Source: Nilaparvata lugens
Taxonomy: Eukaryota; Arthropoda; Insecta; Hemiptera; Delphacidae
Direction: 5' to 3'
NCBI RefSeq assembly: GCF_014356525.2
Contig: NC_052507.1
Location: 62,002,295 to 62,066,294, forward strand
DNA length: 64,000 nucleotides
This document shows, in pieces, positions 1,874 to 63,278 of the stretch (within the stretch, counting starts at the first letter, position 1; each line of letters opens with the position of its first letter). The notes under the pieces are model-generated. The model was not told the DNA's origin. It did no database searches and saw only the letters and a program-made list of their open reading frames with translations. The position numbers were made by a program, and so were the translations under genes.

Positions 1874-1965
1874 ATGAAAAAGACTATTGATTGTTTTAAA
1901 TGAAATTGATTTCAAAAGTATTTTGAAGTACTTCAGTAATGTAACTTATGTGTGTTTTGGACAAA

Positions 1966-2010
1966 AATAAAGGCTTTATTTATTATTTATTATTATTATT
2001 AATTTTAAAT
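1966..2010 (+). repeat. AATAAA signal plus TTA/TAT tail, retroelement 3' end
   Basis: An AATAAA polyadenylation signal at 1966-1971 is followed by GGCTTTATT and a TTA-rich simple repeat. This is a typical non-LTR 3' terminus. Capsid-like coding sequence begins directly after it, so this is the junction that removed the 5' part of the DJR gene. Confidence 0.6.
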
Positions 2011-2016
2011 TTGAAA

Positions 2017-2721
2017 CAGGAACTCGTCTTATTGAGGTCACCGACAGACCTAAATTGTGTTGAGTCTACAAGTGGAACAAGCATTAGTGTGAAAATTACA
2101 AAACTACAATGGAGAATGCCCTACATAACTTTAGAAGATCATGTAAGACTGAAATTTTTGAGACTGCTCGATGCTGACACTCCACTGAAATTAGGTTTCC
2201 GGCATTGGGAAATTTGTGAATTACCAAATTTGCAAAATTCACTTAACCATTCTTGGGCAGTTCGTACCACATCGAGTTTTGATAGTCCAAAATACGTTAT
2301 AATTGCATTTCAAACTTATCGTAAGAATAAAATTAAAAAATCAATATCCAATTTCGATAGCTGTGGTATTTACAATGTTAAAGTATATTTGAACAGCAAG
2401 TATTATCCATATGAAAATCTGCTAGGTAAGAAGGAGGTATTATACCGCATGTTCCTGGATTTCGCGCCCTCGTATTATAATCATTCAATCAATAGCGAAC
2501 TCGGAACAGAAATTGACTTTAAAATGTTTTGTGAATCAACACCGCTGATTGTTGTAGATTGTTCACACCAACCAAGTCATTTGAAATCATCGACAGATGT
2601 TTGTATTGAAATGGAATTTAATAGCGCAGTACCTGCAAATACTTCCGCGTATTGCGTTTTAATTAGCGATCATGTGATGGAGTACACACCTCTGACGAGC
2701 ATGGTGAAAGAAGTTCAGTAA
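2017..2721 (+). pseudogene. Double-jelly-roll capsid-like protein, C-terminal half (copy A)
   Basis: This open frame matches the C-terminal ~55% of the 409-aa protein at 16619-17848. Shared blocks in the same order include LVLLRS, an ITKLQW..P motif, FRHWE, a W.V.TTS motif, YPYEN, VVDCS and SAYC.LI..H..EYTPL. That protein resembles the insect and cnidarian double-jelly-roll-like domain family, the fold of capsid proteins in Polinton- and adeno-type dsDNA viruses. The first ~185 residues are missing because the retroelement tail abuts at about 2010. The remaining frame has no stop until 2721. It is followed within 15 bases by a TATA element for the next ORF, giving a compact viral-style gene order. 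Fold assignment is from recalled family resemblance. Confidence 0.7.
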
Positions 2722-2780: not shown

Positions 2781-2796
2781 CCTTTGAACAGACAAC

Positions 2797-3717
2797 ATGT
2801 CCTATTCTTTGTGTTCTGATATTTTGGACAAGCCACAAACTCGCTCTATTGGTATTCAGTGCGATCTTGATATTTTCTATTATGAAGCAAGTACACCGAA
2901 GCCGCTGCAGGTGGAGGAGGAGGAGAAACGAGAAGAGGAGGGGAAAGACTGTGGATTTGAGGAGCCTGCCGCCGAAGATAAAGAAGTGGACAAGCAGGCG
3001 CCTACGAAAATTGCTACGGTTGATCTTCACTGGTTTAAACAAGATTGTAATCAAATTATTGTGAAAGAACTTGCCATAATTGATCAGTTTAATAATTATA
3101 TTGTGTTCCATTTCAAATCACCATTTGCAAAGACAGAATTGAGTGCAAAATTGTATAACGATGTAACATGGTTAGAACGTCACTATCATAAAATAAAATG
3201 GGAAGATGGAGATTTAGAATACAGTGACTCATTAATACGTGATTACCTTGCAGGTTATGAGAAAATTTTCACAAAAGGAACTGAGAAAGCAAAGTTTCTA
3301 AGAAGATTGCATAGCAACGTTCAATGCATACCAGAGGACTTTCCAAAACCTGATTTCAGCTTTTTCACTAGTTCATGGTGTTATGCTGTGTGTAACATTC
3401 ATAAAAATAGACCACATTCTCGCTGTGCTTTATTCTCTGCCCAACATTATAATTCTTTGTTGTTTAAAAATATGTGTCAAACAAATAATTTCTTGTGCGA
3501 AAACAATCGAATGCAAAGTATGAAAATGGCCCCGATGTACACAAATTCACAGAAAAGAAACTTTGCTCGTTATGGATTCTTCTACAACGGAAAACAGATT
3601 CAGTGTGTTTATTGCTTACATGCATTGAGACTGCATAAAGCACGTACATGTTGTCTGTCGACAATTACTGAAGAAAGACCACTTAATTACTCTATAATAG
3701 TTCCTGCCTACACTTAG
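2797..3717 (+). CDS. Uncharacterised 306-aa virus-like element protein (copy A)
   Basis: I do not recognise a named function. The N-terminal third is acidic and Lys/Glu-rich (residues 35-75) and probably disordered. From about residue 77 a folded region begins with a VKELAIID block, then IVFHFKSPF, a WEDGD motif and LAGYEKIFTKGTEKAKFLRRL. The C-terminal third is Cys/His-rich, including a HKNRPHSRCALF stretch and a C..C pair near residue 275. I recall similar proteins with the KEL.I..., H.F..P and WE.GD pattern encoded next to DJR proteins in insect genomes. The layout faintly recalls a diverged exonuclease fold, but I see no complete catalytic set. The gene lies between the DJR fragment and the small ORF at 3740. 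The end of its C-terminus recurs in copy B at 53313-53452. Confidence 0.6.
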   Translation: MSYSLCSDILDKPQTRSIGIQCDLDIFYYEASTPKPLQVEEEEKREEEGKDCGFEEPAAEDKEVDKQAPTKIATVDLHWFKQDCNQIIVKELAIIDQFNNYIVFHFKSPFAKTELSAKLYNDVTWLERHYHKIKWEDGDLEYSDSLIRDYLAGYEKIFTKGTEKAKFLRRLHSNVQCIPEDFPKPDFSFFTSSWCYAVCNIHKNRPHSRCALFSAQHYNSLLFKNMCQTNNFLCENNRMQSMKMAPMYTNSQKRNFARYGFFYNGKQIQCVYCLHALRLHKARTCCLSTITEERPLNYSIIVPAYT

Positions 3718-3739
3718 TTTTGTTCATTCGCTCAACAAC
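3693..3739 (+). promoter_or_regulatory. TATA element overlapping the end of the 306-aa ORF
   Basis: TATAATA (3693-3699) lies inside the last codons of the upstream ORF. It is followed by ATTCGCTCAAC just before the ATG at 3740. The same sequence is preserved upstream of the copy B gene. Confidence 0.4.
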
Positions 3740-4016
3740 ATGGATCCGAGAAAGTGGTTGGCTGCCGACAACGAATTGGAAGTGAGGTTAAAAAACTGTA
3801 TTGATTGGTACGATGAGTGTGAAAGTGCAATTAGGAAATCAACTCCTGAAAATTATAGTTTGGCGAAACAATTGAAAGACATTTTTCTAAGCATGGTTAA
3901 TTTAAATGACAGACTATCTATGTTATTATCGTCCTCATAATTTGTGTATAGATAAGCTAATTAAAATTGAAGATGAAATTATGAATAGTTGTGTTGCTGC
4001 TGAAATGTGTGAATAA
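3740..4016 (+). pseudogene. Small virus-like ORF, frameshifted (copy A of 53034-53312)
   Basis: The frame starts MDPRKWLAADNELEVRLK and is nearly identical to the 92-aa protein at 53034-53312 on the minus strand. Relative to copy B, a 5-base deletion near 3909 shifts the frame, so translation stops at 3940 after 66 residues. The rest of the homologous sequence runs on in another frame to a stop at 4014-4016. The predicted product is Lys/Glu-rich and helical. No function recognised. Confidence 0.65.
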
Positions 4017-4206
4017 ACGTTTTCTGCCTTCAAATGATTTTTCATTATAATATCCCATTCACGATTTTTAGTTTAGTTGCTGCTTAGAGCTAGACCTGAC
4101 AACACCTGTGGTGTGATCTTTTTTATACAGACACGAGCCTCTATAACATGTGCATCTCATCAATTTAGAAAGAGAGATATATCTAGTCACCCCCCTCATT
4201 CGACAC

Positions 4207-4548
4207 ATGTCAAACATCTGGGAAGCCGTTAACATGCAGTGTTATGGTTTTTCAAAATTCAAAAAATTAACTCGTCTCTTGATGTCAATTTCATTTAACG
4301 AATTTGATTCAATTGCGAAGAATATTAAATTTTCAACAGGATGTCAAGATGTTGATTTACCGTTAACAAAAACAGAAAATGTACATTTTTCGATTTTATC
4401 TGAGATTTTCGAACTGCTCAATATTCTAGACAGCGGCCATCTACATTATGATTGTACAAATGATTCAGCATTATCTGTTGTTAAAAATTCCGATGAACTT
4501 TGGAAATGCTTGTACGATATTGCAGATAAAAAATGTAAAAGAACTTAG
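4207..4548 (+). CDS. Small virus-like ORF, 113 aa (copy A)
   Basis: The start is placed at the ATG at 4207 because copy B (52520-52861) begins at the same residue; the open frame extends upstream to 4150 only in this copy. The protein begins MSNIWEAVNMQCYGFSKFKK and is about 95% identical to copy B, with no stops in either. That shared conservation over two separated copies argues for real coding sequence. No known domain seen: soluble, mixed alpha/beta, Cys at several positions, basic C-terminus (KKCKRT). Upstream, a TTTTTTATACAG stretch (about 4120) may be a TATA element. Directly downstream begins the repeat-rich terminus of the element. Confidence 0.6.
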   Translation: MSNIWEAVNMQCYGFSKFKKLTRLLMSISFNEFDSIAKNIKFSTGCQDVDLPLTKTENVHFSILSEIFELLNILDSGHLHYDCTNDSALSVVKNSDELWKCLYDIADKKCKRT

Positions 4549-5360
4549 ATCATTGTAGAGATTCACTAGTATAGCATTAGATGTGAGAGAGAGAGAGAGA
4601 GAGAGAATTTCTCAATTCAATTAGATGTAGAGAGAGTCATTGACCTCACTTTGGATTCACTAGTATAGCATTAGAGTAATATGGATTCACTAGTACAGTA
4701 TAGCAAAAAGGATTCACTTTTATTTGTCAGCAAGGGAATTTTCCCCTCAAAGGGAAATTTTCCCTCACTTTATTCATCCCCCTCATCTATACTGGGAGAG
4801 AGAGAGAATTTCTCAATTCACTTCAATCTGTCAGTATAGCATTAGAGTAATATGGATTCACTAGTACAGTATAGCAAAAAGGATTCACTTTAATTTGTCA
4901 GTATAGCATTAGATGTAGAAATATGGATTCACTTTAATCTGTCACCAAGGGAATTTTTCCCTCTCAAAGAGATTTTTTCCCCTCATCTAGCATTCACTTC
5001 AATCTTTCAGTATAGCATTAGATGTAGAAATATGGATTCACTTTAATCTGTCAGTATAGAGAGGGAATTTTTCCTTCTAAAAGGGAAATTTTTTCCCTCA
5101 CCTGGGGAGGGGGAAGGGGAGAGAGAGAGAGAGAGATATCTCTTTTCAACCCCCTCACCTCCACTGGGCAGGGGGAAGGGGAAATCTATTTTTAGAAAGA
5201 GAGAGAGAAAGATATATCTCTCTCTTTTCAACCCTCTCACCACCACTGGTCAGGGGGAAGGGGAAATCTATTTTTAGAACACCCCCCACCCACCAGGCGG
5301 GGGGAAGGGGAGGCGGGATGGACGAGGGGGGAGAGGGGGGAGGGGGTTTTGGAGCAAAAA
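4549..5360 (+). repeat. Repeat-rich terminal region of virus-like cluster A
   Basis: From 4549 to about 5060 there are interspersed copies of a unit containing GGATTCACT, TTAATCTGTCAGTATAG and CATTAGATGTAGA. This is followed by purine-rich (GA)n and G-tract sequence to about 5360. The same modules occur, inverted, at 51769-52515. Both copies share the terminal motif GGGTTTTGGAGCAAAAAAG and diverge directly after it, so about 5361 is the likely element end. Confidence 0.7.
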
Positions 5361-5462
5361 AGTGGCCTCAAAATCTTAGATTCCTTCTACTGATGGAAAA
5401 TGCGAAAAAACGCAAATGAAAAATTATCTAAACAATCAAAAATGATTCAAACAAGAATCAAT

Positions 5463-5986
5463 TATGTTATGTTAACATAACCTGAGAGATGGAAGTGCGC
5501 TTCATCACTCATCCACAAACGGTTTACAATGTCCTCGTCTTCATTAATCAAATCCAAAAATTCTAAGCTGAACTAGCTTCTGCTTACAAAATCCGTTTCC
5601 TTTAGGGCCTGAACCATTTGGATTTTGTATGGGTGGAAGTGCAAATCTTGGTGTAAAATTCGTCTTACCGTTCGGTTTGAAATCCCAAGTGTAACGCTGT
5701 GTCGGCGAGCTGAGCGACGAGGGCTTCTGTCAATGGTGACTCTTACACGTTCAACGTTTTCAGGTCTGCACACAGTTTTTGGTCTTCCTGTTTTCTTCCT
5801 TGTCATTGACGCAGTCTCTCCAAAGTTCTTAACCCGATTTTTAATCACACAGGCAGATGGCACCGGCTGATTCCGATTAATGTTGAAATGGTTGCGGAAT
5901 GCACGACGTGCTAACTGGTATGAACTACCGTTTTGATAAAAGGCTTTGAGAGCGTACGCATGATGTTGTGGGATCCAGCACTCCAT
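5463..5986 (-). pseudogene. Tc1/mariner (IS630)-type transposase fragment
   Basis: On the minus strand the frame begins MECWIPQHHAYALKAFYQNG, a helix-turn-helix DNA-binding region, followed by the GRPKT linker and a second helical region (SNRTVRRILHQDL). The ORF stops at 5573, but the same frame continues past this stop with a SDEAHFHLSGYVN block. That block holds the first catalytic Asp of the DDE/D domain. The sequence then loses similarity, so the remaining catalytic residues are absent. Inactive, truncated copy; no inverted ends were identified. Confidence 0.8.
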
Positions 5987-6283
5987 TGTGACTAAATGCT
6001 ATTCTGCGCCAAACGTAACTGATGCCATCCCCTCCACCTCCCTCCAACGCAACTTGGTTCGTGCGCTTTTTAAAATCGCTAATTATTATGCCTCACTTCG
6101 TATTTGATCAACAGTCTTTCATGGAGTAACAGTCCATTTTATCAAATATTTGATAATAATTAATGAAGGTCTGATAGAGAAGCAAATCTATGATTTTTTC
6201 AAATTCAAATTTATTTACAGATGGAATTAAATAGAGAATGCATTTATTCAAATGCTAATTGATTTATAATTATTATTTAACGA
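5987..6283. other. Non-coding, nothing recognised
   Basis: AT-rich intergenic DNA between the transposase remnant and the SINE pair. No open frame or structural repeat seen. Confidence 0.5.
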
Positions 6284-6617
6284 AAATCCTAAATAAATGC
6301 TGCAAATCACACCGAAGACCTCTGCTACTGCAGACATTGACAACAGGGTTAACAGCTAGATGGAAATTCGATGAGAACTACTATCCAAAAATTAGTTGCC
6401 AGCCCTAAAATGAGCGCTGCTATCCAGAGATTGTCAGTTTGGTGTAAGGGCAAGCATACCTGACTAGCAATTGGGAGGTACCGGGTTCGATTCCCGGGCT
6501 GGCAACTGATTCTTGGATAGTAGTTCTCATCGAATTTCCATCTAGCTGTTAACCCTGTTGTCAATGTCTGCAGTAGCAGAGGTCTTCGGGGTGATTTACA
6601 GCATTTATTTAGGATTT
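6284..6617. repeat. Head-to-head SINE pair forming a 122-bp inverted repeat
   Basis: The arms 6284-6405 and 6496-6617 are near-perfect reverse complements, each containing GCAGTAGCAGAGGTCTTCG or its complement. The right half is a tRNA-derived SINE whose tRNA head precedes the arm. The left half is a minus-strand copy truncated inside its tRNA head (ending at GTTGCCAGCC). The transcript would fold into a long hairpin. Confidence 0.75.
6431..6506 (+). ncRNA. tRNA-like SINE head
   Basis: A-box-like TGGTGTAAGGG and B-box-like GGTTCGATTCC are present. Ends TTGTCAG and CTGGCAA pair as an acceptor stem, CCGGG/CCCGG forms a T stem, and an anticodon-like loop CTAGCAA can be drawn. D-arm geometry is imperfect, so this is a SINE pol III promoter and not a functional tRNA. 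Confidence 0.6.
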
Positions 6618-6978
6618 CAAATTTATTTCTCAAAAAACATACACAATTATAATAATATAATATTATAACATCTAGAAATAATACAAGAAAAATACTATGA
6701 AATATATAAAATGATCCCAAAACTGCAGCATATAATTTTTTATGTCCATCTATGTTTAAGGAGTAGCCTACAAGGTAAAACCTGTGCGTAGACTTAAGTT
6801 GCAGTAATATATTTATTCAATATAAACTAAGAAATTAAACCAAAATAAGAACAAAGATTAGTGGAATTTACACACAAATATAAATTTGTAGATTAAATTA
6901 GATAAAAGTTAGTAAAACACAATAATTATTATTCTATGATAAATAAAAACAGAACATAAAACAAGAAACAGTTGGTGC
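6618..6978. other. Non-coding AT-rich, 3' flank of non-LTR element
   Basis: No gene seen. It probably includes the 3' untranslated region of the minus-strand retroelement ending near here. No clear poly(A) or target duplication could be fixed. Confidence 0.4.
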
Positions 6979-14630: not shown

Positions 14631-15028
14631 ATTAATTGTAGAGATTCTCATTTTCAATCTTTTCCACTCGAAATTTTTTGTTCAAATTGTATCTGAAGCC
14701 TGATAATTGAGAATCTAAAATCAAACTTTGCATAGATGGGGTGGAGCTCCTGAAATTTTCACAGATATGGGACTTGTGGCAGTTCATAGAGCTTATCGAT
14801 GACTATTTTAGGTATAACTTTAATCAAAATCGTTGAAGCCGTTTTCGAGAAAATTGCGGAAAACCCTTTTTTTGACAACATTTTCGCTATTTTAGCCGCC
14901 ATCTTGAATCGCATTTGATTGAAATTGTTCGTGTCGGATCCTTATATTGTAAGGAGCTTACGTTCCAAATTCCAAGTCATTCCGTTAATTGGGAGATGAG
15001 ATATCGTGTACACAGACGCACATACACT

Positions 15029-15064
<36 letters not shown>

Positions 15065-15975
15065 ACACACACACACACCACACACACACATACAGACCAA
15101 TACCCAAAACCACTTTTTTGGACTCAGGGGACCTTGAAACGTATAGAAATTTGGGTACCCTAATTTTTTTCGGATAGCAAATCTGCCCCAAATCTGATTC
15201 TTGGTTCTAACCTTGCCCAATCCAATGTAATCTGATCTAACCTAACCTAGCCATACCCCTAATCTCACAATAAACCTCAAATGAAGATTTCCCACTTTTT
15301 TGGAAAAAAAACTAGATCCAGCTTTTTTTATTTCTTGAATAACTAAGGAACCGTTGATTTTACAAAAAAATTACAAGAGTAACTTTTTCCAGTAAATCTA
15401 ATAACAAATCCATTGACACCCCATTTGTCAAGATTGAACAAAAAATAAGGATCTCATGGGAAAACTAGATCCAGGTTTTTTTTATTTCTTGAATAACTAA
15501 GAAACCGTTAATTTTACAAAAAATCTACAAGAATAACTTTTTCCAGTAAATCTAATAACAAATCCATCGACACCCCATTTGTCAAGATTGAACAAAAAAT
15601 AAGGATCTCATGGGAAAACTAGATCCAGCTTTTTTAATTTCTTTAATAACTAAGAAATCAAGAATAACTTTTTCCAGTAAATCTAATAACGAATCCATTG
15701 ACACCTCATTTGTCAAGATTGAACAGAAAATAAGGAAAAATTAGATCCAATTTCTTGAATAACTAAGAATAATTTTTTTCAGTAAATTCATTATTTGTCA
15801 AAGGGATCCTAACTCTGAAACTGAGCAACAAGCATTTTTATGTTGAGACCCTTTCTTAAGCAAACCTCAGCACTAAACCCCCCCCCTACAGGAGGGGGGG
15901 GGTTGGGGGGCTTGACCCTCTGCCTTTAACCAGCTAAGCTTGAACTACTTGAAAACTCACCTCAGGTTGTATTAA
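14631..15975 (+). repeat. Left terminal inverted repeat of the DJR element
   Basis: Reverse complement of about 17850-19320. It includes a (CA)n run at about 15038-15090 and the C/G-tract hairpin at about 15877-15917. The spacing is slightly shorter than the right arm. Confidence 0.85.
15300..15800 (+). repeat. ~170-bp tandem repeat in the left arm
   Basis: Units contain AACTAGATCCAGCTTTTTT, AATAACTAAGAAACCGTT, CTTTTTCCAGTAAATCTAAT and CCCCATTTGTCAAGATTGAA. There are about four copies, the last two shortened. The mirror array lies at about 18020-18520. Confidence 0.8.
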
Positions 15976-15997
15976 ACATTTATTATAAAAATAGATC

Positions 15998-16566
15998 ATG
16001 AGTGTTGATAAATTTGGTCGATATTTGTATGATAAAGATAATAATAGAGATATTAATGTTGATATAAAAAATTTGATTCAGAATTTTTTCCATTTTTTAC
16101 AATGTATACCATTAGCTGCAACTTTCATACCAAACATCAATCTCAATAATGAAAAAGAATGGAAGTATATGACTGATCCAAACTTAATTCAACAATTCTC
16201 ACTTTCTTCTGGAATCTCTTTTAAAGAATGGTATGAAAAGAATGTAATAAATATAGGTGAAAAATCTTAGGTTTAGGTGAGTACACCCAGAAAGAAATTT
16301 TAGATGTAGGTGAGTACACCCAGAAAAAAATGTAGGTTTGGTTATCCAGACCAAGAACATTATTCAACTTTAATGAAAAATCTAAGCTTATATGGATAGC
16401 ACTATATCATCACAGTCAGTATTTTGCTTTGAAAGGAGCTGATAAATTGAATAATAATATAAAATGCTTTAAAATTAAATTTGAAGAAAATGGTTGAGAT
16501 CAAGACAAGAACAATTCTACAAATCAATGGGATGATACTGAAGGTAAAATATTGATACATTTGTAG
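15998..16566 (+). pseudogene. Decayed ORF of the DJR element
   Basis: The first frame (15998-16270, 90 aa) starts MSVDKFGRYLYDKDNNRDIN at the first ATG inside the left repeat and is Asn/Ile-rich. After its stop, further coding-like sequence (GYPDQEHYSTLMKNLSLYG, then IALYHHSQYFALKGADKL and QWDDTEGKILIHL) continues in shifted frames to about 16566. Two short repeats (AGGTGAGTACACCCAGAAA at about 16275 and 16309) lie at the break. I do not recognise the protein. Its position opposite the capsid-like gene makes a second virion component a reasonable guess, nothing more. Confidence 0.5.
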
Positions 16567-16618
16567 ATAATACTTTTGATTTGAATATTGTCTAGTTCTT
16601 TGTTATTTTATAGAAGAT

Positions 16619-17848
16619 TTATAATACTCTTTTTACTGTTCCACTCAGTGGTGTATATTCAAACTCATTATCATAGAGGATTAAACAGTAGGCACTGGTT
16701 TTTTCTGAGAAATTATTTGTTGTTTCCAATGTCAACTTTATGTCTATTGCACCAGATTTCAATAGTTCATTTTGCTTACTACAGTCTATAACAACCAATG
16801 GTGCATATTCATCAAATGTTTTATACTCAATTGATGTACTGCTGTTATAAGGATAGTATTCATTTTGGAATTCAGAGAACATGTGATACAATAAATGTTT
16901 ATTACCAACAATATTTTCATAGGGGAATGATTGAGCATTTAAATAGAGATTAACATTGTTCAGATTACAGAAATCAAAATGTGACCTGTTAGCAGTTATA
17001 ACATTTTTCCTATTCTTTTGTAATCCAAGAATAATGAATCTAGGTTTCAATATGTTTGAAGTTGTCTTAACTGTCCATTGAAGATTGGTAGTTTCAGGTG
17101 ATTGTGGAAATTCATGCAATTCCCATGATCTGAATGGAATGGTAATTGGTATATCACTATGTGTTAAACTCAGCAGATCAAGACAAACAGTGTCAGAAGA
17201 ATGTATGTGAGGTACTTTCCATTGTAGTTTTGTAATATCAATTCTCACCGATTTTGCTGTCTCTGATTCATTACAATTTAAGTCTGATCTTAATAGAACA
17301 ACTTCCTGACAAACATTTAATAGAACTTTTCTATAGTCTTCCATTACACCTAACCACATATCCAAAGGAATGCGGAAGCAGAATTTATCTAAACTTTTCC
17401 ATCCAGTCAACTTCCATCCTGCATTCTCCATAATTCTTTCATTGAGTTTTGATTGACGTAGATAGTTTTTCATGGTTGTTGTCAATCCTACATTACGTGA
17501 GCGATCAACTTCAACCCCTCCCAATTCATATCTGATTTCATCAAATAGGTATGCAACTCCATTATTGATAAGTGAAAAGTCCTTGGTTTCAACATCATTC
17601 TTATCTTTCACTTTGATTTCACCTTCAATTATGAGAAAACTTCTACTTGGAAGTGTATAAATATCTTCTTGTTTTAAACTAATTCGAATTTCATCATTGT
17701 AATTAAATGTCTGTTGAATATATGGTTTGTGAGTGATATACTCATATTTGGTAATACTCTCATCAAGATGTACACTCTGATCAACAAGTAATATATCCGA
17801 CTTGACTTCTTTCTTATACATTTTTATTATATATTTTTTTCTTCTCAA
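16619..17848 (-). CDS. Double-jelly-roll capsid-like protein, 409 aa, intact
   Basis: Read on the minus strand without stops. Residues about 35-185 form the first half, with YTLPSRSFLIIEGEI, a NNGVAYLFDEIRYELGGVEVDR block and RNVGLTTTMKNYL. Residues about 186-409 form the second half, with VVLLRSDLNCNES, ITKLQWKVPHI, FRSWELHEFP, TVKTTS, YPYEN, VVIDCSKQNE and SAYCLILYDNEFEYTPLSG. Two beta-rich halves of similar size fit the double-jelly-roll major capsid fold, and I recall a family of uncharacterised insect and cnidarian proteins with this pattern. Either of two starts (residue 1, or Met10 MYKKEVKSD) is possible. The gene lies between 1.4-kb inverted repeats and converges with the decayed ORF at 15998. 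No protease, ATPase or polymerase accompanies it. Homologous to the fragment at 2017-2721. Confidence 0.8.
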   Translation of the reverse strand: MRRKKYIIKMYKKEVKSDILLVDQSVHLDESITKYEYITHKPYIQQTFNYNDEIRISLKQEDIYTLPSRSFLIIEGEIKVKDKNDVETKDFSLINNGVAYLFDEIRYELGGVEVDRSRNVGLTTTMKNYLRQSKLNERIMENAGWKLTGWKSLDKFCFRIPLDMWLGVMEDYRKVLLNVCQEVVLLRSDLNCNESETAKSVRIDITKLQWKVPHIHSSDTVCLDLLSLTHSDIPITIPFRSWELHEFPQSPETTNLQWTVKTTSNILKPRFIILGLQKNRKNVITANRSHFDFCNLNNVNLYLNAQSFPYENIVGNKHLLYHMFSEFQNEYYPYNSSTSIEYKTFDEYAPLVVIDCSKQNELLKSGAIDIKLTLETTNNFSEKTSAYCLILYDNEFEYTPLSGTVKRVL

Positions 17849-17849
17849 T

Positions 17850-18849
17850 ACAACCTGAAGTGAGTTTTCAAGTAGTTCAAGCTTAGCTGGTTAAAGGCAG
17901 AGGGTCAAGCCCCCCAACCCCCCCCCTCTGTGGGGGGGGGGGTTTAGTGCTGAGGTTTGCTTGAGAAAGGGTCTCAACATGAAAATGCTTGTTGCTCAGT
18001 TTCAGAGTTAGGATCCCCTTGACAAATAATGAATTTACTGAAAAAAATTATTCTTAGTTATTCAAGAAATTGGATCTAATTTTTCCTTATTTTCTGTTCA
18101 ATCTTGACAAATGGGGTGTCAATGGATTCGTTATTAGATTTACTAGAAAAAGTTATTCTTGGTTTCTCAGTTATTAAAGAAATTAAAAAAGCTGGATCTA
18201 GTTTTCCCATGAGATCCTTATTTTTTGTCTAATCTTGACAAATGGGGTGTCGATGGATTTGTTATTAGATTTACTGGAAAAAGTTATTCTTGTAGATTTT
18301 TTGTAAAATTAACGGTTTCTTAGTTATTCAAGAAATAAAAAAAAGCTGGATCTAGTTTTCCCATGAGATCCTTATTTTTTGTTCAATCTTGACAAATGGT
18401 GTGTCAATGGATTCGTTATTAGATTTACTGGAAAAAGTTACTCTTGTAATTTTTTTGTAAAATTAACGGTTCCTTAGTTATTCAAGAAATAAAAAAAAGC
18501 TGGATCTAGTTTTTTTTCCAAAAAAGTGGGAAATCTTCATTTGAGGTTTATTGTGAGATTAGGGGTATGGCTAGGTTAGGTTAGATCAGATTACATTGGA
18601 TTGGGCAAGGTTAGAACCAAGAATCAGATTTGGGGCAGATTTGGGGGCAGCTTTGGGGCAGCTTTTCTCCAGCTTTTCTTCAGCTTTTCTCCAGCTTTTC
18701 TCCAGAACTCTCACTTTACCCCTACTTATTACCATTGGTAAGGAAAGTAATTGCTATCCGAAAAAAATTAGGGTACCCAAATTTCTATACGTTTCAAGAT
18801 CCCCTGAGTCCAAAAAAGTGGTTTTGGGTATTGGTCTGTATGTGTGTGT

Positions 18850-18922
<73 letters not shown>

Positions 18923-19320
18923 AGTGTATGTGCGTCTGTGTACACGATATCTCATCTCCCAATTAACGGAATGACTTGGAATTTGGAACGTAAGCTCCTT
19001 ACAATATAAGGATCCGACACGAACAATTTCAATCAAATGCGATTCAAGATGGCGGCTAAAATAGCGAAAATGTTGTCAAAAAAAGGGTTTTCCGCAATTT
19101 TCTCGAAAACAGCTTCAACAATTTTGATTAAAGTTATACCTAAAATAGTCATCGATAAGCTCTATGAACTGCCACAAGTCCCATATCTGTGAAAATTTCA
19201 GGAGCTCCGCCCCATCTATGCAAAGTTTGATTTTAGATTCTCAATTATCAGGCTTCAGATACAATTTGAACAAAAAATTTCGAGTGGAAAAGATTGAAAA
19301 TGAGAATCTCTACAATAAAT
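17850..19320 (-). repeat. Right terminal inverted repeat of the DJR element
   Basis: Matches the left arm in inverse orientation. It carries an extra block near 18637-18760 with repeated CTTTTCTCCAG and CACTTTACCCCTAC. A similar block lies just outside the arm at 19321-19386. Confidence 0.85.
18838..18925. repeat. (GT)n microsatellite
   Basis: Long GT dinucleotide run with one GTGG interruption inside the right arm. The matching (CA)n in the left arm is shorter. Confidence 0.9.
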
Positions 19321-19498
19321 GCTTTTCTCCAGCTTTTCTCCAGAACTCTCACTTTACCCCTACTGTAATAGGGCAAGGAAAGTAAAAATCGAATGTCCTG
19401 CTTAGCTGTTTTCTCCAATAGGTAGGCTATTATGACTTAACACTCAACTTACCGTACCTCTGTAGTACAATATAGATTTGAATGAGGTTTTCACCTAC

Positions 19499-28167: not shown

Positions 28168-29652
28168 ATGAGTGCTGAAGAGAGGAGTAATTGCAGAAGT
28201 GAGGAAGGCGTCAAGGAGGATGCAGAAGACAACATCAGGGATCCAAGAGTGGCCTGGATTTACAGGCTTCATAGGGATGAAGCAGTGAAATTCTTGGCCA
28301 CGGCAGGGCTACCTACAACTGGAACCATGGCCGAGCTCAGGAGAGCTCTTGTCGAAAACCACCTGAGTACAATGGTGGAGGCCGCCGGTCTAAACAGGAT
28401 CGGTGGCGGAGCTGGCACAGGTCAGGAAGAGGAAGGACCTGCAGCTTTGTGGCCACCAGTCACAGAGGCCACTACATTTTCCAGACTGGAAGAAATACCC
28501 AAGGAGATGTCTCCAGAGTTTGATGGCGACTCCAGCAACTCCTGGGTGTACAGAGTGCATGATCAGGGCTTTATTGATCTACTAATCGACTCAGTGCTGA
28601 CAGATGACACAAGTACGAGCCTGAGGAGGGCTCTACTGGAGCAACGACTGCAGATTGTTGAAATGCTTCCTGTTTTGAATAATGGGGAGGAGGTGCTTCG
28701 ATGAGGAGCACGGAGGCCAGCACCAGTTAGGAAGGAGGCAACTGCGGAGACACTATATCATGCAGAGCCTGCACTGGTGAGGCCAGAGATGCCGGAGAGG
28801 CATAATAACATGCCTAGGCATGTATTGAGGTCACCTACCAGACCAGCGGTGCCTGCTACATCCTTTATAAACCCGGGTGCTGTGTGTGACAATGTTCGAG
28901 GGTGGTGGCTCTCATATGATGGGAGTGGAGATGCTCCAAGGTTTATGTAGCGGCTTGAGGAGCTGCAACAAGCATATGGCTTGTCTGGCAGACAGTTATT
29001 TCCAGCGTTGCCTGAAATGTTAGCGGGGAAATGTTCCTTATGGATGAGGAATAGAAGAGAACAGTGGAGACACTGGGACGATTTCCTCAGAGACTTCCGG
29101 TCTCGTTACTATCCACCTACTTATGAAGAGGATCTTGAGAATGAAATTCTCGACAGGCGGCAGAGAGAAGGCGAGCTCATAGACAACAATGTTGAGGAGC
29201 TGCTAACGCTGATGAGAAGAAGAGGTGGTTTTCCTGAGAGGAGCCAGGTACACAGATTGTACAAAAATCTTTTACCATGCTACAAGATCTACATCAGGGA
29301 GGCTGAAGTGTACTCCATCGACGACTTGCTACACTCAGCGAGACAATATGAACGGATTAAGTTCGAGGAGAAGAACGCTCAACAGAGACAACGAGCCATG
29401 AAGCAGGAGGAGGTGATGAAGCAGACGAAGCCTCGACAGGATACTACTACTACACAGCGTTGGAGTGAACAACCTCCAGAAGGCCCCTTGTGTTGGCAGT
29501 GCAAGAAGGTGGGACACTGGAGACCAGAGTGTCCGGAGGTTTCACTCTGCTCAAAGTGCGGAAGCCACGACCAAATTTTTCATGTGAGAGAGTGCAGAAG
29601 AAGACTTCTGATAAAACAGCTGTGGTTGAAACGAGGCTTCAAATCCAGCTAG
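28168..29652 (+). pseudogene. LTR retroelement gag with two in-frame stops
   Basis: The start is taken as the ATG at 28168; the open frame before it crosses the primer site and cannot be coding. A single frame runs to 29652 but is interrupted by TGA (28702-28704) and TAG (28948-28950). The N-terminal part is a matrix-like helical region (LHRDEAVKFLATAGLPTTGT, LRRALVE repeated at two places). The capsid-like part has WMRNRREQWRHWDDFLRDFR, RYYPPTYEEDLENEIL and a VEELLTLMRR block. Two zinc knuckles end it: CWQCKKVGHWRPEC and CSKCGSHDQIFHVREC. This is a gypsy-type or related gag; compare the ARC-like capsid fold. Confidence 0.85.
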
Positions 29653-39697: not shown

Positions 39698-42600
39698 CTA
39701 TTCAGTTCTTCCGTAATTTACACTAATATTTTATACACGCGTATATTATTGACAATGATATACGCTTTCAAGATGTATAATTTGAATACTTCTAATTCAA
39801 TCTTTTCTCTATTTTTGATGAACTTCCATTCTCAAATCTTGCAGTATGACCAATACATGCACTCACTCATTCCAGCAATATTTCATTCTTATTATTCTTA
39901 TTTTCACACTTTCTGAAACAGTTTTACTTTGAATCAATTAGTTCCTGATTTTCTTTAGTCTATATTGATAAGCTGTTATGTACAAAAATAGGGAGTGACT
40001 TCGAAGCGGAACACATTTAATATATTTTCTAACACATCATTAATCACCAAAATTCTTATGAATTTTCCTTCTCGAGTAAATAGTCCGGGCGCAACAGTCA
40101 TGAATAAGGCACTCCGTGGTCATTTTTGAGTAACAGCCGTGGAAGATGTCTCAATTTCTTCATTAGGTCTAGCATAATAAGGATCGTGATGATGATAGGT
40201 CGAAATCACAGGCAAACACCTCGAAAACAAGATGGCCGCCAAAATTCCCAGGGTTTTGCTATATCGCTTGTATTTCAATAACGGTTCAAGATAATCAACC
40301 TTTGTTTTGGACGAAAATATTTTAAAAACCCTCCTATACAATTTTTGTTCTATAAAATCTTCCTCTAAAGCGCATATTGTTTTAGTTATAACTTTCAAAA
40401 GCCCAAAAAAACGTTTTTTCTAATTTTTTTCAAATTTGATTCCTTTATAACTTTTTCCGTGCAAGAGATACAGAGAAATTTTGAATCTATGAAGTTTAGA
40501 GCGTTATTCCAGCTTTGGAACGATATATCTTTTTGCGCTGTACGTCAGGAAATGAGTTCTCAAGCGCCCTCAAAAAATAAACCCTGCACGGTTTCTGGTG
40601 CGTTTTGCCATACACATGAAGTGACAAGCTAGAACTAGAAAATCGATTTTTTCATGACTACTTCAAGATAGAGACTTGAAAATGGTCTCAATCTCTTCGT
40701 TATAACAAGCCGAATAAGAATATTGATGATGGAAGCAACGAAAATATTCGACATCATTGAAAAATTCAAGATGGCGGTCATTATTGACAGAAATTTTTAT
40801 ATCGCTTGCTATTTAGTTATTGTGAGAGATATTGGATTGGTTTTACCACCAAAGTGTTCAGAATTGAACAAACTATGATGTTCGAGAGAATCGACTCATT
40901 TCGACCACTTTTTTCATGATTCATTCAACTTCAAAAACTTGAAACATACATTTCTCGGGGACAATATTTCACTTTCACTTTAAATGTATTTACAGTAGAC
41001 ATACACCAGTGTAATTGGTACAGTGTTCTAGTATATTTCTAAAGCTTCAAAATGACATCTGGTTGGAGGCAGGCAGTTCATATTCCACGGCTGGAGCGTC
41101 ATCGGAACAAGAGAGAAAAGTACTGTTTGCAGCTGAAAACATGCTTTTTCCACCAAATGCCAATCCCAACAATTAGAAAACCGTGTAACTCATGACTCCT
41201 TCAAGGTACAGACTTGAGAATAGTATCAATCTCTTTATAATAATGTGTAGAAAGTGATCATCCATGATGGTTATCTCAAAAATGTTTGTCATCATAAAAA
41301 AAAACAAGATGGCGGCAAAAATATGCCGATTTTCAAGAAATCGTCCGTAATTCTAATAATGTCGTGGATATGGGATCAGTTCAGCCATGTGGAAGCTCCA
41401 AAATAATCATACTACAATATCCGAAAGATTTATCTAATTCCAACAACTTTTACTATGGTTAATATAGATGTCAACCAGATGTCATTTTGAAGCTTGGAAA
41501 TATACTAAAATATAAACTTCGAATTCTTTGTTGCCTAGAGGACTGGTACATAGAAATTTCAGTCTGTTTCCACTGTTCCGATGAAGTTAAATTCTCTTTC
41601 TGCCTGGCATTCATTTGTATCACCTTTTAACTTATAGCTCAGCAAGCACAAGTGAAGCTTATTTTATAATTCTCGTATTTTGACAGTAGGCTTATAACTG
41701 TAGTGCTCTCAATAATTAAGAATTTGAAAATGATTGGAGCATACACAAGACAATCATCCCGTTGTTCTCAAGATTATTGTTTGTGCTTAGGTCTAATGAT
41801 TTTTAGAAATTATTGCTAAGGAAATCGAATTTCTTCAATATTTAGCATTTTCTCAATTGATTGACAATCGGGAGTATTGAGTATCGGATTGACATTGAAG
41901 TATGATCAAGCTAGACTATATAGCAAGATTTGTGAAAATTGATCAGCTATCAACAACTTTCAAAATTTTTGATGCTTGCAAGATTGTCAGAAATTATAAT
42001 CTTATTCGTTAGGCAACAAAGAATTTAAAGTTTCTATTTACTGCAGAAGGAGAATTCATAAGAATTTTGGTGATTAATGATGTGTTAGAAAATTTATTAA
42101 ATTTGTTCCGCTTCGAACTATATTATTTTATTTTATCTGATATTATCAGATTAGCTCATTTACTTTAGATTACCAGTTTGTCAGAGATTTATAATGGTGT
42201 AACAACCGAAACCGGTATCTCGATTTTTTATTAATTTGTGGTTTGACAATATCTTTTCTTTTCATTTAATATAAATTACAAAATATGTTCGCTTGAATTC
42301 TAGGTTATGATAGTTGAAAATGATACTAATTCATTATTCGATTGATTGACCAAAGCATAAATACTGTAAGGACTTATTTGAAGAAAGAGGAAATTAAGAG
42401 AAAGAGGGTGCGAGAGTCAGGTTCTCTTCATCAGACAAACCCATGAGTTTGTGAGCGTGTAAAAGATAGTAAGATAGAGAGATAAAGTAATTATAAAAGA
42501 TAGCAAACGATAGAAGATAGCAAATGATAGGGATTCAGAGAGCTTGTACAAGAAAGCAAGAGAGTATTGGAGGGTGCATACAAACTCGGCAGTAATGGTC

Positions 42601-43056
42601 AAAGGAATTTCAGTATTTCATGGGACCCTCAAAAAGTGCTATACAAACTCGGTAATTTTTGTAAAGATTGAGCAGGGACTACATAATACACCTATTGTAT
42701 TTCGTGCTTGCTTGTACAGAAACCCTTTTCACTCATCACCATGTTCCTTTCCATGAAACGCACATGACACCACTCAATCAAGTGATCTAACAAATAATTA
42801 TCAATCTCGAATCGTCCTTTCCAGTTTCCAAGTAGATTTCAACAACTCTTATACTGACAGATTACAATTTCTATGAGATTTTCAAGGTTCTGTTGAAATT
42901 CAACACTACAATAGAACATTACTCCATCATTCACAATGTATAATCTTATATTGTTAGTTATAAGATTGTTATTCTTAGTCTATCATTCATTACTTTTATA
43001 ATATGGAAAACTGATATTATTTCATATGATCTTGTTGAAGAAATAATTATATCTTA
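39698..43056 (+). repeat. Large inverted repeat, left arm (~3.36 kb)
   Basis: Reverse complement of 59866-63270 at high identity. Anchors include CAGTTCTTCCGTAATT at the outer end, three AAGATGGCGGC-type blocks, TCGAAGCGGAACA..TTTAAT, and CTGATATTATTTCATATGATC at the inner end. No gene in the arm; the short ORFs at 40120-40398 and 42417-42602 are shared by both arms without protein-like features. Confidence 0.85.
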
Positions 43057-51768: not shown

Positions 51769-52515
51769 TTTTTTGCTCCAAAACCCCCTCCCCCCTCTCA
51801 CCCCTTGTCCATCCCACCACCCCTTCCCCCCGCCAGCAGGGTGGGGGGTGTTTGGGGGTGTTCTAAAAATAGATTTCCCCTTCCCCCTGCCCAGTGGAGA
51901 TGAGGGGGATGAAAAGAGAGAGATATATCTTTCTCTCTCTCTCTCTCTCTCTATCCCCTTCCCCTTGCCAGTGGTGATGAGGGGGATGGAAAGAGATATC
52001 TCTCTCTCTCTCTCTCTCTCAAATAGATTTTCCCTTCCCCTTCCCAGTATAGATGATGGGGATGAAAAGAGATATTTCTCTCTCTCTCTATCCCCTTCCA
52101 CTTGCCTAGTGGTGATGAGGGGGATGAAAAGAGATATCTCTCTCTCTCTCTCAAATAGATTTTCCCTTCCCCTTCCCCAGTATAGATGAGGGGGATGAAG
52201 AAAGTGAGGGAAAAAATAATTTCCCTTTGAGGGTGAAAAAATTCCCTTGCTGACAGATTGGAGTGAATCCTTTTCTCTAATGCTATACTGACAGATTGAA
52301 GTGAATCCTTCACTCTACATCTAATGCTATACTGTCAGATTGAAGTGAATCCTTCACTCTACATCTAATGCTATACTGTCAGATTGAAGTGAATCCTTTT
52401 CTCTAATGCTATACTGTCAGATTAAAGTGAATCCTTCACTCTACATCTATACTGACAGATTAAAGTGAATCCCTCTCTCACATCTATACTGTCATATTAA
52501 AGTGAATCTCTACAA
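51769..52515 (-). repeat. Repeat-rich terminal region of virus-like cluster B
   Basis: Inverse of 4549-5360: TTTTTTGCTCCAAAACCCCC at the outer edge, then C-tract and (CT)n blocks, then repeated ATGCTATACTGACAGATTGA units. Confidence 0.75.
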
Positions 52516-52519
52516 TAAT

Positions 52520-52861
52520 CTAAGTTCTTTTACATTTTTTATCTGCAATATCGTACAAGCATTTCCAAAGTTCATCGGAATTTTTAACAACAGATAATGG
52601 CGAATCATTTGTACAATCATAATGTAGATGGCCGCTGTCTAGTATATCGAGCAATTCGAATATTTCAGATAAAATAGGAAAGTGTACATTTTCTGTTTTT
52701 GTTAACAGAAAAACAACATCTTGACATCCTGTTGAAAATTTAATATTCTTCGCAATTGAATCAAATTCGTTAAATGAAATTCCCATCAAGAGACGAGTTA
52801 ATTTTTTGAATTTTGAAAAACCATAACACTGCATGTTAACAGCTTCCCACATGTTTGACAT
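52520..52861 (-). CDS. Small virus-like ORF, 113 aa (copy B)
   Basis: Nearly identical to 4207-4548, start MSNMWEAVNMQCYGFSKFKK, intact. Upstream on the minus strand, TTTTTTATACAGACGAGAC (about 52920-52940) precedes the ATG by about 60 bases and is a candidate core promoter. Substitutions relative to copy A are few and mostly conservative or semi-conservative. Unknown function. Confidence 0.65.
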   Translation of the reverse strand: MSNMWEAVNMQCYGFSKFKKLTRLLMGISFNEFDSIAKNIKFSTGCQDVVFLLTKTENVHFPILSEIFELLDILDSGHLHYDCTNDSPLSVVKNSDELWKCLYDIADKKCKRT

Positions 52862-53033
52862 GTGTGTCTGTTCCTACAATATGCACGTGTTGTACCTACA
52901 ACTTGAAGACTTGTCTCGTCTGTATAAAAAAGATCACACCACATGTGTTGACACGTCTAGCTCTGGGCGAGTACTAAACTAAAAATCGTGAATGGGATAT
53001 TGGAATGAAAAATCATTTGAACACGGAAAAAGT

Positions 53034-53312
53034 TTATTTACACATTTCACCAGCACAACTATTCATAATTTCATCTTCAATTTTAATTAACTTATCTATA
53101 CACAAATTATGAGGACGAGAATAACATAGATAGTCTCTTATGTCATTTAAATTAACCGTGCTTAGAAAAATGTCTTTCAATTGTTTCCCCAAACTATAAT
53201 TTTCACGAGTTGATTTCCTAATTGCACTTTCACACTCATCATACCAATCAATACAGTTTTTTAACCTCACTTCCAACTCGTTGTCAGCAGTCAACCACTT
53301 TCTCAGATCCAT
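53034..53312 (-). CDS. Small virus-like ORF, 92 aa (copy B, intact)
   Basis: Begins MDLRKWLTADNELEVRLKNC; the C-terminus (CIDKLIKIEDEIMNSCAGEM) is present here but frameshifted away in copy A. It is helical and charged with several Cys. A TATAATAG element just upstream (about 53350-53360 on the minus strand) matches that of copy A. No domain recognised. Confidence 0.6.
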   Translation of the reverse strand: MDLRKWLTADNELEVRLKNCIDWYDECESAIRKSTRENYSLGKQLKDIFLSTVNLNDIRDYLCYSRPHNLCIDKLIKIEDEIMNSCAGEMCK

Positions 53313-53452
53313 GATAAGCGAATGAACAAAACTAAGTGTATGCAGGAACTATTATAGAGTAATTAAGTGGTCTTTCTTCATTAATTGCCGACAGACAACA
53401 TGTACGTGCTTTATGCAGTCTCAATGCATGCAATAAACAATTTGAGGAATTT
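53313..53452 (-). pseudogene. Truncated end of the 306-aa ORF (copy B)
   Basis: The sequence corresponds to the last ~15-20 codons of the 2797-3717 ORF plus its 3' flank, with a stop. At about 53452 cluster B ends abruptly and Rep-element-related sequence begins. Confidence 0.6.
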
Positions 53453-53554
53453 GAGAGCTCTAACATTGATTTGAATTATAAAATTAGAATTAAGCTAGAT
53501 GTTCTGAAGCATAACCCCAGTAGACATAAGGAAAGAGTTGTATTTTGTATTTAA
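53453..53554 (+). pseudogene. 3' end of the Rep-companion ORF (fragment)
   Basis: FEEFESSNIDLNYKIRIKLD through HKERVVFCI matches the end of the minus-strand fragment at 54783-55028. Confidence 0.7.
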
Positions 53555-54782: not shown

Positions 54783-55028
54783 TTAAATACAAAATACAAC
54801 TCTTTCCTTATGTCTTCTGGGGTTATGCTTTAGAACATCTAGCTTAATTCTAATTTTATAATTCAAATCAATGTTAGAGCTCTCAAATTCCTCCTCTAAC
54901 CAATAGTTAGACACATACAATTCTTCTAGGCTCTCAAACTGTAAAATATACCATATCTTGTTTCTATTGTACACTTCTTTTATTGCAATAATGACCAACT
55001 CTATACCTTCTGCTAACTCTTCTAACAT
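54783..55028 (-). pseudogene. Rep-companion ORF, C-terminal fragment
   Basis: MLEELAEGIELVIIAIKEVY through LEELYVSNYWLEEEFESSNI to HKERVVFCI. Matches the C-terminal two-thirds of the 57479 ORF, except that this version has a longer natural end. Confidence 0.7.
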
Positions 55029-55049
55029 TTGATTTGCTGTGTCCTCCTT

Positions 55050-55195
55050 CCTCCTCCTTTCTCCTCCTTTGTCCTCCTTTGTCCTCTGAGGACAAAAATT
55101 CTCCTCTGAGCACAAAAATTGTCCTCCGAGGACAAAAACTGTCCTCCGATGACAAAAATCCTCCCCTCCGAGGACAAAAATTGTCCTCCGTTCTC
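55050..55195. repeat. Array of GTCCTC-N-GAGGAC palindromes
   Basis: About five imperfect copies of GTCCTCCGAGGACAAAAA or close variants at ~20-24-bp spacing, bounded by CT-rich simple repeats including (CCT)n at about 55201-55233. They lie about 280-400 bases upstream of the Rep-like gene's promoter. Confidence 0.8.
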
Positions 55196-55312
55196 CTCCT
55201 TTGTCCTCCTCCTCCTCCTCCTCCTCCTCCTCCACTCGTTTAGCAGGAGAGAAAAAATGAGAGAGGAATGAGAAGAAGGAGGGAGAACATTTGTGTAATT
55301 ACACTCAATGTT

Positions 55313-55458: not shown

Positions 55459-55495
55459 CTATAAATACTCCAGGATAATTGACATTCGCTCAGTT
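55459..55495 (+). promoter_or_regulatory. TATA (TATAAATA) and TCAGTT initiator of the Rep-like gene
   Basis: TATAAATA at about 55459-55466 lies about 30 bases before GCTCAGTTTG (55488-55497), a textbook arthropod core promoter. The first ATG with good context after the initiator is 55521. Confidence 0.65.
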
Positions 55496-55520
55496 TGATA
55501 GTAACAGCGAAACAGTGAAC

Positions 55521-57463: not shown

Positions 57464-57478
57464 ATTACCACCAATGGC

Positions 57479-57835
57479 ATGACAAGCTATAATGGTAACA
57501 CATTTCCAAAAATACAAAATCTGAAATTTTTGTCAGATGTATGGAAAAACTTGGAAGACACCCCATTCACACAGACAGAAGTGGAGCAGTATAATAACAT
57601 CACAATGCTGGAAAATAAAGGAGAAGTAAAAGTAGGACAGTGCAAAAGATTAGAAGAATTACCAGAAGGTACAGAGTTGGTCATTATCGCAATAAAAGAA
57701 GTGTACAATAGAAACAAGATACGGTATATTTTACAGTTTGAGAGCCTAGAAGAATTGTATGTGTCTAACTATTGGTTAGAGGAGGAATTTGAGAGCACAC
57801 ACACGAATCATCCATGTAGGGGTTATATCTATTAA
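57479..57835 (+). CDS. Rep-companion ORF, 118 aa
   Basis: MTSYNGNTFPKIQNLKFLSD, NITMLENKGEVKVGQCKRLE, ELPEGTELVIIAIKEVYNRN and KIRYILQFESLEELYVSNYW. The LE.L..GTEL.I..I..V.....I.YILQF pattern is beta-rich and could be a single-strand DNA-binding OB fold; this is inference only. The last 12 residues (after EEEFES) differ from the two fragment copies, so the 3' end was replaced. Fragments of the same ORF flank the Rep-like gene at 53453, 54783 and 55313. Confidence 0.6.
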   Translation: MTSYNGNTFPKIQNLKFLSDVWKNLEDTPFTQTEVEQYNNITMLENKGEVKVGQCKRLEELPEGTELVIIAIKEVYNRNKIRYILQFESLEELYVSNYWLEEEFESTHTNHPCRGYIY

Positions 57836-62800: not shown

Positions 62801-63270
62801 TTATGCTAGACCTAACGAAGAAATTGATACATCTTCCACGGCTGTTACGCATAAATGACCACGGAGTGCCTTATTCATGACATTTGCGCCTGGACTATTT
62901 ACTCGAGAAGGAAAATTCATAAGAATTTTTATGATTAATGATGTGTTAGAAAATATATTAAATGTGTTCCGCTTCGAAGTCACTCCCTATTTTTGTACAT
63001 AACAGCTTATCAATATAGACTAAAGAAAATCAGGAACTAATTGATTCAAAGTAAAACTGTTTCAGAAAGTGTAAAAATAAGAATAATAAGAATGAAATAT
63101 TGCTGGAATGAGTGAGTGCATTGGTCATACTGCGAGATTTGAGGATGGAAGTTTATCAAAAATAGAGAAAAGATTGAATTAAAAGTATTCAAATTATACA
63201 TCTTGAAAGCGTATATCATTGTCAATAATATACGCGCGTATAAAATATAAGTGTTAATTACGGAAGAACT
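59866..63270 (-). repeat. Large inverted repeat, right arm (~3.40 kb)
   Basis: Inverse of 39698-43056. It carries a ~50-bp extra block at about 62097-62146 with (TATT)n. The outer end (AATTACGGAAGAACTG) is interrupted by the RT fragment from about 63271. Confidence 0.85.
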
Positions 63271-63278
63271 GAATTCTT

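What the first reader, a model, noticed from the sequence alone, without database searches (positions are those of the whole stretch)
14631..19320. Capsid-gene transposon: intact DJR capsid-like ORF between ~1.4-kb terminal inverted repeats, in a host intron
A 4.7-kb unit with ~1.35-1.47-kb inverted arms encloses only an intact 409-aa double-jelly-roll capsid-like gene and one decayed convergent ORF. No polymerase, integrase or transposase is present. It looks like a satellite-style derivative of a Polinton-like virus that kept its capsid gene, or a new element class mobilised in trans. Long inverted ends and the fold family are read or recalled; the satellite idea is inference.
Basis: partly seen in the sequence, partly recalled or inferred. 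Interest (0 to 1): 0.9.

Follow-up and report, generated by a model that had tools for sequence, protein, structure and literature searches.

The report
Short Polinton transposon carrying capsid gene
An insect genome holds many copies of a short jumping element that lacks the copying and inserting genes of its virus-like relatives but often keeps an open virus-shell gene, so it looks like a satellite that may still make its own capsid protein.

The parts
15178..18726 (.). mini-Polinton as it stands in this locus; left terminus lost
   Evidence: comparison with genome copies; 110-bp deletion at 15177/15178
15178..15976 (+). left terminal inverted repeat without its terminal bases (about 83, by the right arm); holds ~154-bp tandem repeats
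   Evidence: 276 nt are 97.5% identical to the left arm of a full Polinton
17845..18726 (-). right terminal inverted repeat, complete
18709..18726 (.). true right terminus TCTCACTTTACCCCTACT
   Evidence: same terminus in fetched genome copies; position read
15998..16270 (+). 90-aa ORF (MSVDKFGRYL...GEKS), homolog of the end gene of the full Polinton
   Evidence: complete short counterpart next to the left arm in L044
16271..16599 (+). remnant of further Polinton genes, not open
   Evidence: core 329-541 matches the MESFEK gene region of L041; stops and frameshifts in copies
16619..17821 (-). double-jelly-roll major capsid protein gene, 400 aa from the first ATG, open
   Evidence: PF21738 E 5e-88; model pLDDT 87.5, pTM 0.86; folds
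14636..15177 (+). left host flank (host repeat) that is mirrored on the right side; not part of the element
   Evidence: L011 holds left flank plus this stretch, mostly 88-91% identical
18727..19315 (-). inverted copy of the left host flank, lying after the right terminus
   Evidence: L039 shows a mirrored flank too
18727..18732 (-). TATTAC: inverted copy of the target duplication GTAATA
   Evidence: sequence; interpretation inferred
19321..19364 (+). second, partial copy of the element's right terminus
   Evidence: direct repeat of 18683-18726, 100% over 44 nt (D5)
19365..19370 (+). target site duplication GTAATA, right side
   Evidence: sequence; inferred by pairing with 18727-18732

Best explanation
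This is one copy of a non-autonomous mini-Polinton. Shown: termini and arm sequence shared with a full Polinton of the same genome, 6-bp target duplications, a short two-gene core (90-aa end gene and a convergent capsid gene), and many copies, part of them with an open capsid frame. Inferred: the full Polinton's family B polymerase copies the element from its termini and its integrase inserts it; both genes are read from promoters in or next to the arms, since the clear arm homology stops about 24 nt before each start codon; and the capsid gene has been kept by selection between insertions because a copy that makes capsid protein spreads better, while inserted copies decay like any transposon. 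The mirrored host flank in the window is a secondary event in which one arm was copied from the other beyond its end, likely by template switching; it is not an element end.
For: Ends and exact 6-bp duplications in 12 of 13 two-ended copies out of 20 fetched. Full Polinton at C15:59606067-59623012 with the same termini and TCTATG on both sides. Gene content of this Polinton family: PF08398 phospholipase and PF21738 (in L043) and PF03175 polymerase B (in L041) above cut-off, rve and chromo below cut-off on a partial integrase piece of L043. Arm 97.5% identical over 278 columns and end gene 90% over 259. 102 genome matches scored of 3286 candidates: 96 of the mini type, 60 of them near full length, 36 of those 60 without stop; 6 of the Polinton type, all without stop. 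In 41 copies examined (window, L021-L040, L047-L066) the ORF2-region remnant lies next to the capsid gene. Nineteen equal-length capsid genes: shared changes 9 S and 5 N (P 0.008 against a neutral N share of 0.70), pN 0.0041, pS 0.021, neighbouring non-coding core 0.041. Mini (L023) versus Polinton (L043) capsid 71.3% aa identity over 401, dN/dS 0.23. L027 is a mini/Polinton mosaic. Arms within 13 copies differ by 0.12-3.9%, so some insertions look recent.
Against: Movement by the Polinton enzymes is inferred from shared ends, not observed. The full Polinton's capsid is only 71% identical while the arm stretch is 97.5% identical, so the exact parent was not found. The capsid copies tested for selection were among the best-scoring, which favours synonymous change, and synonymous divergence itself is half that of the non-coding core. 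Chosen by the neighbouring ORF2 DNA instead, 14 of 40 copies have a full-length frame without stop, 8 have stops, 10 are partial and 8 are not among the scored capsid rows: many copies are dead. L039 has no 6-bp duplication. No transcript, particle or insertion polymorphism was looked at.
Confidence: 0.87

Rival explanations
1. Plain hitch-hiker: an internally deleted Polinton that spreads because it has the ends; the capsid gene is there by chance and has no role in its spread.
For: 26 of 40 copies chosen by ORF2 DNA are not shown to have an intact capsid frame; the stretch behind the 90-aa ORF is debris; selection counts are small and come from well-scoring copies.
Against: Shared changes 5 N to 9 S (P 0.008), pN about ten times and pS two times below the neighbouring non-coding core; dN/dS 0.23 across 29% aa divergence from the Polinton capsid, although that divergence may have arisen in an autonomous parent not found here.
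Confidence: 0.4
2. Segment of a multipartite, ITR-ended insect DNA virus, like the Vesanto virus segments, that became integrated.
For: Small unit, long ITRs and one or two genes; Vesanto segments are 3.3-5.8 kb with ITRs (PMC8363768 section 3.3).
Against: 6-bp duplications and termini shared with a large Polinton that has integrase-like sequence explain it without segmentation; the mini core is a rearranged piece related to that Polinton.
Confidence: 0.05
3. Host gene: capsid gene domesticated for a host role (for example antiviral), spread by duplication.
For: Open frames and a purifying pattern.
Against: Dispersed copies with target duplications and terminal repeats, wide copy decay.
Confidence: 0.03
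4. 4.7-kb transposon with the first reader's ends and a 3-bp TAA duplication.
For: TAA flanks both ends of the inverted arms.
Against: None of L002-L020 has these ends on both sides; in L011 the outer arm is joined to the window's left-flank sequence; true ends with 6-bp duplications lie inside.
Confidence: 0.02

Closest known systems
Polinton/Maverick transposons (polintoviruses, adintoviruses)
   Same: Terminal repeats, AG/AGT...CT/ACT-type ends, 6-bp target duplications, DJR capsid; relatives with PolB in the same genome
   Different: 3.3-3.8 kb instead of about 17 kb; no polymerase or integrase; two genes only
Non-autonomous DNA transposons and MITEs in general (recalled)
   Same: Kept ends, lost enzymes, many copies
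   Different: Keeps an open virion gene with a selection-like pattern instead of no gene
Capsid-encoding phage satellites (cf-PICI, recalled; a 2023 Streptomyces satellite-helper paper, PMC10690885, start of abstract seen in a search listing)
   Same: Satellite that codes for encapsidation parts while relying on a helper for other steps
   Different: Eukaryotic, integrase-type ends, no packaging genes found; capsid use not shown
Vesanto virus (Drosophila, multi-segment bidna-like)
   Same: Small ITR-ended units
   Different: No DJR capsid or integration signature reported in the section read
Virophages such as mavirus (recalled)
   Same: DJR capsid, integrates, depends on another virus
   Different: Carries its own polymerase and integrase; larger

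Membership tests
Polinton/Maverick (autonomous) | 6-bp target site duplication | tested here: met
   12 of 13 two-ended mini copies; full Polinton TCTATG; feature as stated in PMC8097293 (passages)
Polinton/Maverick (autonomous) | end motifs of AG/AGT...CT/ACT type | tested here: met
   AGTAGGGG...CCCCTACT; motifs (AG)3//(CT)3 and (AGT)2//(ACT)2 stated for vertebrate Mavericks in PMC8097293; ours begins AGTAG, so similar, not identical
Polinton/Maverick (autonomous) | long terminal inverted repeats | tested here: met
   about 0.67-0.91 kb left and 0.75-1.24 kb right, leaders included, in 13 copies
Polinton/Maverick (autonomous) | protein-primed family B polymerase | tested here: not met
   no such ORF or match in the element; PF03175 E 3.9e-28 in L041 (protein priming not tested). 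Hence filed as a non-autonomous derivative, not as a Polinton proper
Polinton/Maverick (autonomous) | RVE integrase | tested here: not met
   none in the element; in the large element rve 22.6 bits (cut-off 32.6) and chromo 21.8 (25.1) on a partial piece
Polinton/Maverick (autonomous) | double-jelly-roll major capsid protein | tested here: met
   PF21738, model and fold matches
Polinton/Maverick (autonomous) | FtsK-like ATPase and cysteine protease | tested here: inconclusive
   no room in the element; candidate ORFs in L043 had no Pfam hit at E 0.01
Satellite with its own capsid | possible helper with matching cis sequences in the same genome | tested here: met
   competence of the helper not examined
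Satellite with its own capsid | capsid protein used for packaging or transfer of the element | not testable with these tools
   only a selection pattern
Vesanto-like multipartite virus | co-occurring free segments with common ITRs | not testable with these tools
   no read data

The most novel reading that the evidence does not exclude
A eukaryotic satellite that encodes its own capsid protein: it borrows polymerase and integrase from a Polinton, recombines with it, and is kept capsid-competent by selection because capsid made from its own copies favours packaging or transfer of the small genome, possibly between cells or hosts.
Probability: 0.35. Interest if true: 0.88.

Novelty: new variant of a known kind. 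Interest (0 to 1): 0.74.

Why it matters
Polintons carry capsid genes, but their particles had not been observed according to the abstract of PMC8097293 (start of abstract seen in listings). A non-autonomous derivative that lacks polymerase and integrase yet often keeps an open capsid gene gives a natural test of whether capsid matters for spread: in trans-mobilised copies an unused gene should evolve neutrally. It also puts likely helper and satellite in one genome, with a mosaic copy between them.

Full report

Genome copies. The window's assembly (1.085 Gb) gave 102 scored matches out of 3286 candidates, a lower bound. By my tally 96 are at least 75% identical (mini type); 60 of these are near full length and 36 of the 60 have no stop; 6 more are 68-69% identical and without stop. 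I fetched 20 high-ranking ones (L021-L040). In 13 both ends were found (up to two substitutions allowed): AGTAGGGGTAAAGTGAGA at the left and its complement at the right, element length 3295-3839 bp, and 12 of the 13 have an exact 6-bp target duplication. Six copies showed one end and one none. L039 has no duplication: about 1.77 kb of its left flank is repeated in inverted order on the right as part of a 98.5% identical inverted repeat.

What the window's outer arms are. The stretch 14636-15177 occurs in L011 joined to the window's adjoining left-flank sequence as one continuous repeat (mostly 88-91% identical), so I take it as host DNA. After the true right terminus at 18726 follows an inverted copy of that flank, then 44 bases of the right terminus again (19321-19364), then GTAATA (19365-19370), whose inverted copy lies at 18727-18732. 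I read this as an insertion at GTAATA followed by a template switch between the two arms that mirrored the left flank. The left arm later lost 110 bp including its terminus. This history is inference from the sequence.

The likely helper. Three of the six 68-69% matches were fetched with 10 kb each; they lie in large elements whose shared stretches are 99.56-99.95% identical. They encode integrase-like sequence (rve and chromo, below cut-off on a partial piece of L043), a phospholipase A2-like protein (PF08398, L043), the capsid protein (PF21738, L043) and a family B polymerase (PF03175, E 3.9e-28, L041). The other ORFs tested had no Pfam match; any reading of them as ATPase, protease or penton is recalled pattern only. 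By eye the capsid of this family is the same as P0001, the best protein-database match. One element was followed to both ends: C15:59606067-59623012, 16,946 bp, same termini, TCTATG on both sides. Its left arm matches the window arm at 97.5% over 278 columns, and next to it lies a complete short gene whose DNA is 90% identical to the window's ORF2 start. So the mini-element is a rearranged, internally deleted relative of this Polinton: end gene in place, remnants of further genes, then the capsid gene turned round to face it. Whether any full element is competent was not examined.

ORF2. In 17 of the 20 copies the start was found; 13 of the 17 keep the 90-aa frame to the end (in L037 the stop is lost and the frame runs on briefly), and L021, L031, L033 and L035 are shifted or broken.

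Is the capsid kept by selection? Nineteen capsid genes of equal length (window copy left out) show 14 changes shared by two or more copies, 9 synonymous and 5 not (P 0.008 against a neutral share of 0.70), and 42 private ones, 22 and 20 (P 0.002), plus one stop. pN is 0.0041 and pS 0.021, while the neighbouring non-coding core differs by 0.041, so synonymous sites too are less diverged than that core. An earlier count with the window copy and L037 included gave shared 11 S and 6 N, private 26 S and 34 N with stops counted as N. The copies were high-scoring ones, which favours such a result. Chosen instead by ORF2 DNA (40 scored of 346 candidates), 14 have a full frame without stop, 8 a full frame with stops, 10 a partial one, and 8 have no scored capsid row. 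The mini (L023) and Polinton (L043) capsids differ at 28.7% of 401 residues with dN/dS 0.23, but part of that may have accumulated in an unknown autonomous parent. In 41 mini-type copies (window, L021-L040, and 1-kb pieces of 20 more) the ORF2-region remnant lies next to the capsid gene; none of these shows the gene order of the full Polinton there. The other scored mini-type rows were not examined, apart from L004, L013 and L014, which look the same.

Contact between the two. In L027 about 110 nt around the start of the 90-aa gene are Polinton-like (60 of 60 in one 60-column block) and the rest of the compared stretch is mini-like. Such a mosaic needs both templates in one nucleus, by replication or by gene conversion. 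Arms within the 13 copies differ by 0.12 to 3.9% (the aligned pieces include short leaders, so these are upper values), so insertions span a range of ages, some recent.

Working model. Shown: shared ends, duplications, gene content, copy number. Inferred: replication by the Polinton polymerase, integration by its integrase, transcription from the arms, and a benefit from making capsid protein. The plain hitch-hiker is the main rival and is not excluded.

Known background. Maverick hallmarks (6-bp duplications, AG/AGT end motifs) are as stated in PMC8097293 (passages). Polinton gene content is as stated in PMC4028283 (passages). PMC6431247 was seen in passages, PMC11071308 in abstract, outline and one passage, PMC8363768 in passages and section 3.3. 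No paper with the six names tried for non-autonomous Polintons was found.

Noticed in passing
window 1945-2718 (+): Second DJR capsid gene (PF21738 E 9e-61), 44% identical over 234 columns, its front part missing behind a reverse-transcriptase-like ORF pair (186-1834, read by eye as a LINE); followed by a 309-aa ORF (2788-3714) with a weak BIR match (E 0.0019) behind a TATA and TCAGT-like leader seen by eye.
   Followed up: partly
window 3606-4705 and 52369-53439: Inverted repeat, 85.6% identical over 1118 columns, carrying the end of the BIR-like ORF and a further unknown ORF.
   Followed up: partly
window 55479-57206 (+), fragments 54783-55298 (-), 53444-53551 (+), 57464-57835 (+): Conserved unknown protein with 33 homologs, many about 780 aa, named ones from Schistocerca, Planococcus, Cacopsylla, Laodelphax and Aphis; motifs DLDITQDF...KIYNKF...GITRLEATIYNY suggest a rolling-circle initiator (recalled); fold evidence weak.
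   Followed up: partly
P0130: Same Rep-like protein annotated in a Baumannia MAG on a 60-kb contig: probably insect host DNA in a bacterial bin (inference).
   Followed up: no
window 39700-43045 and 59873-63274: 3.4-kb inverted arms, 94% identical, around 16.8 kb.
   Followed up: no
L039 (oriented) 1-2209 and 4730-6925: Second mini-Polinton whose host flank is mirrored, for about 1.77 kb (98.5%), hinting that arm-to-arm template switching recurs; insertion into an older palindrome is not excluded.
   Followed up: partly
window 28951-29649: Retrotransposon gag-like ORF (PF03732 E 3e-9) with a zinc knuckle.
   Followed up: no
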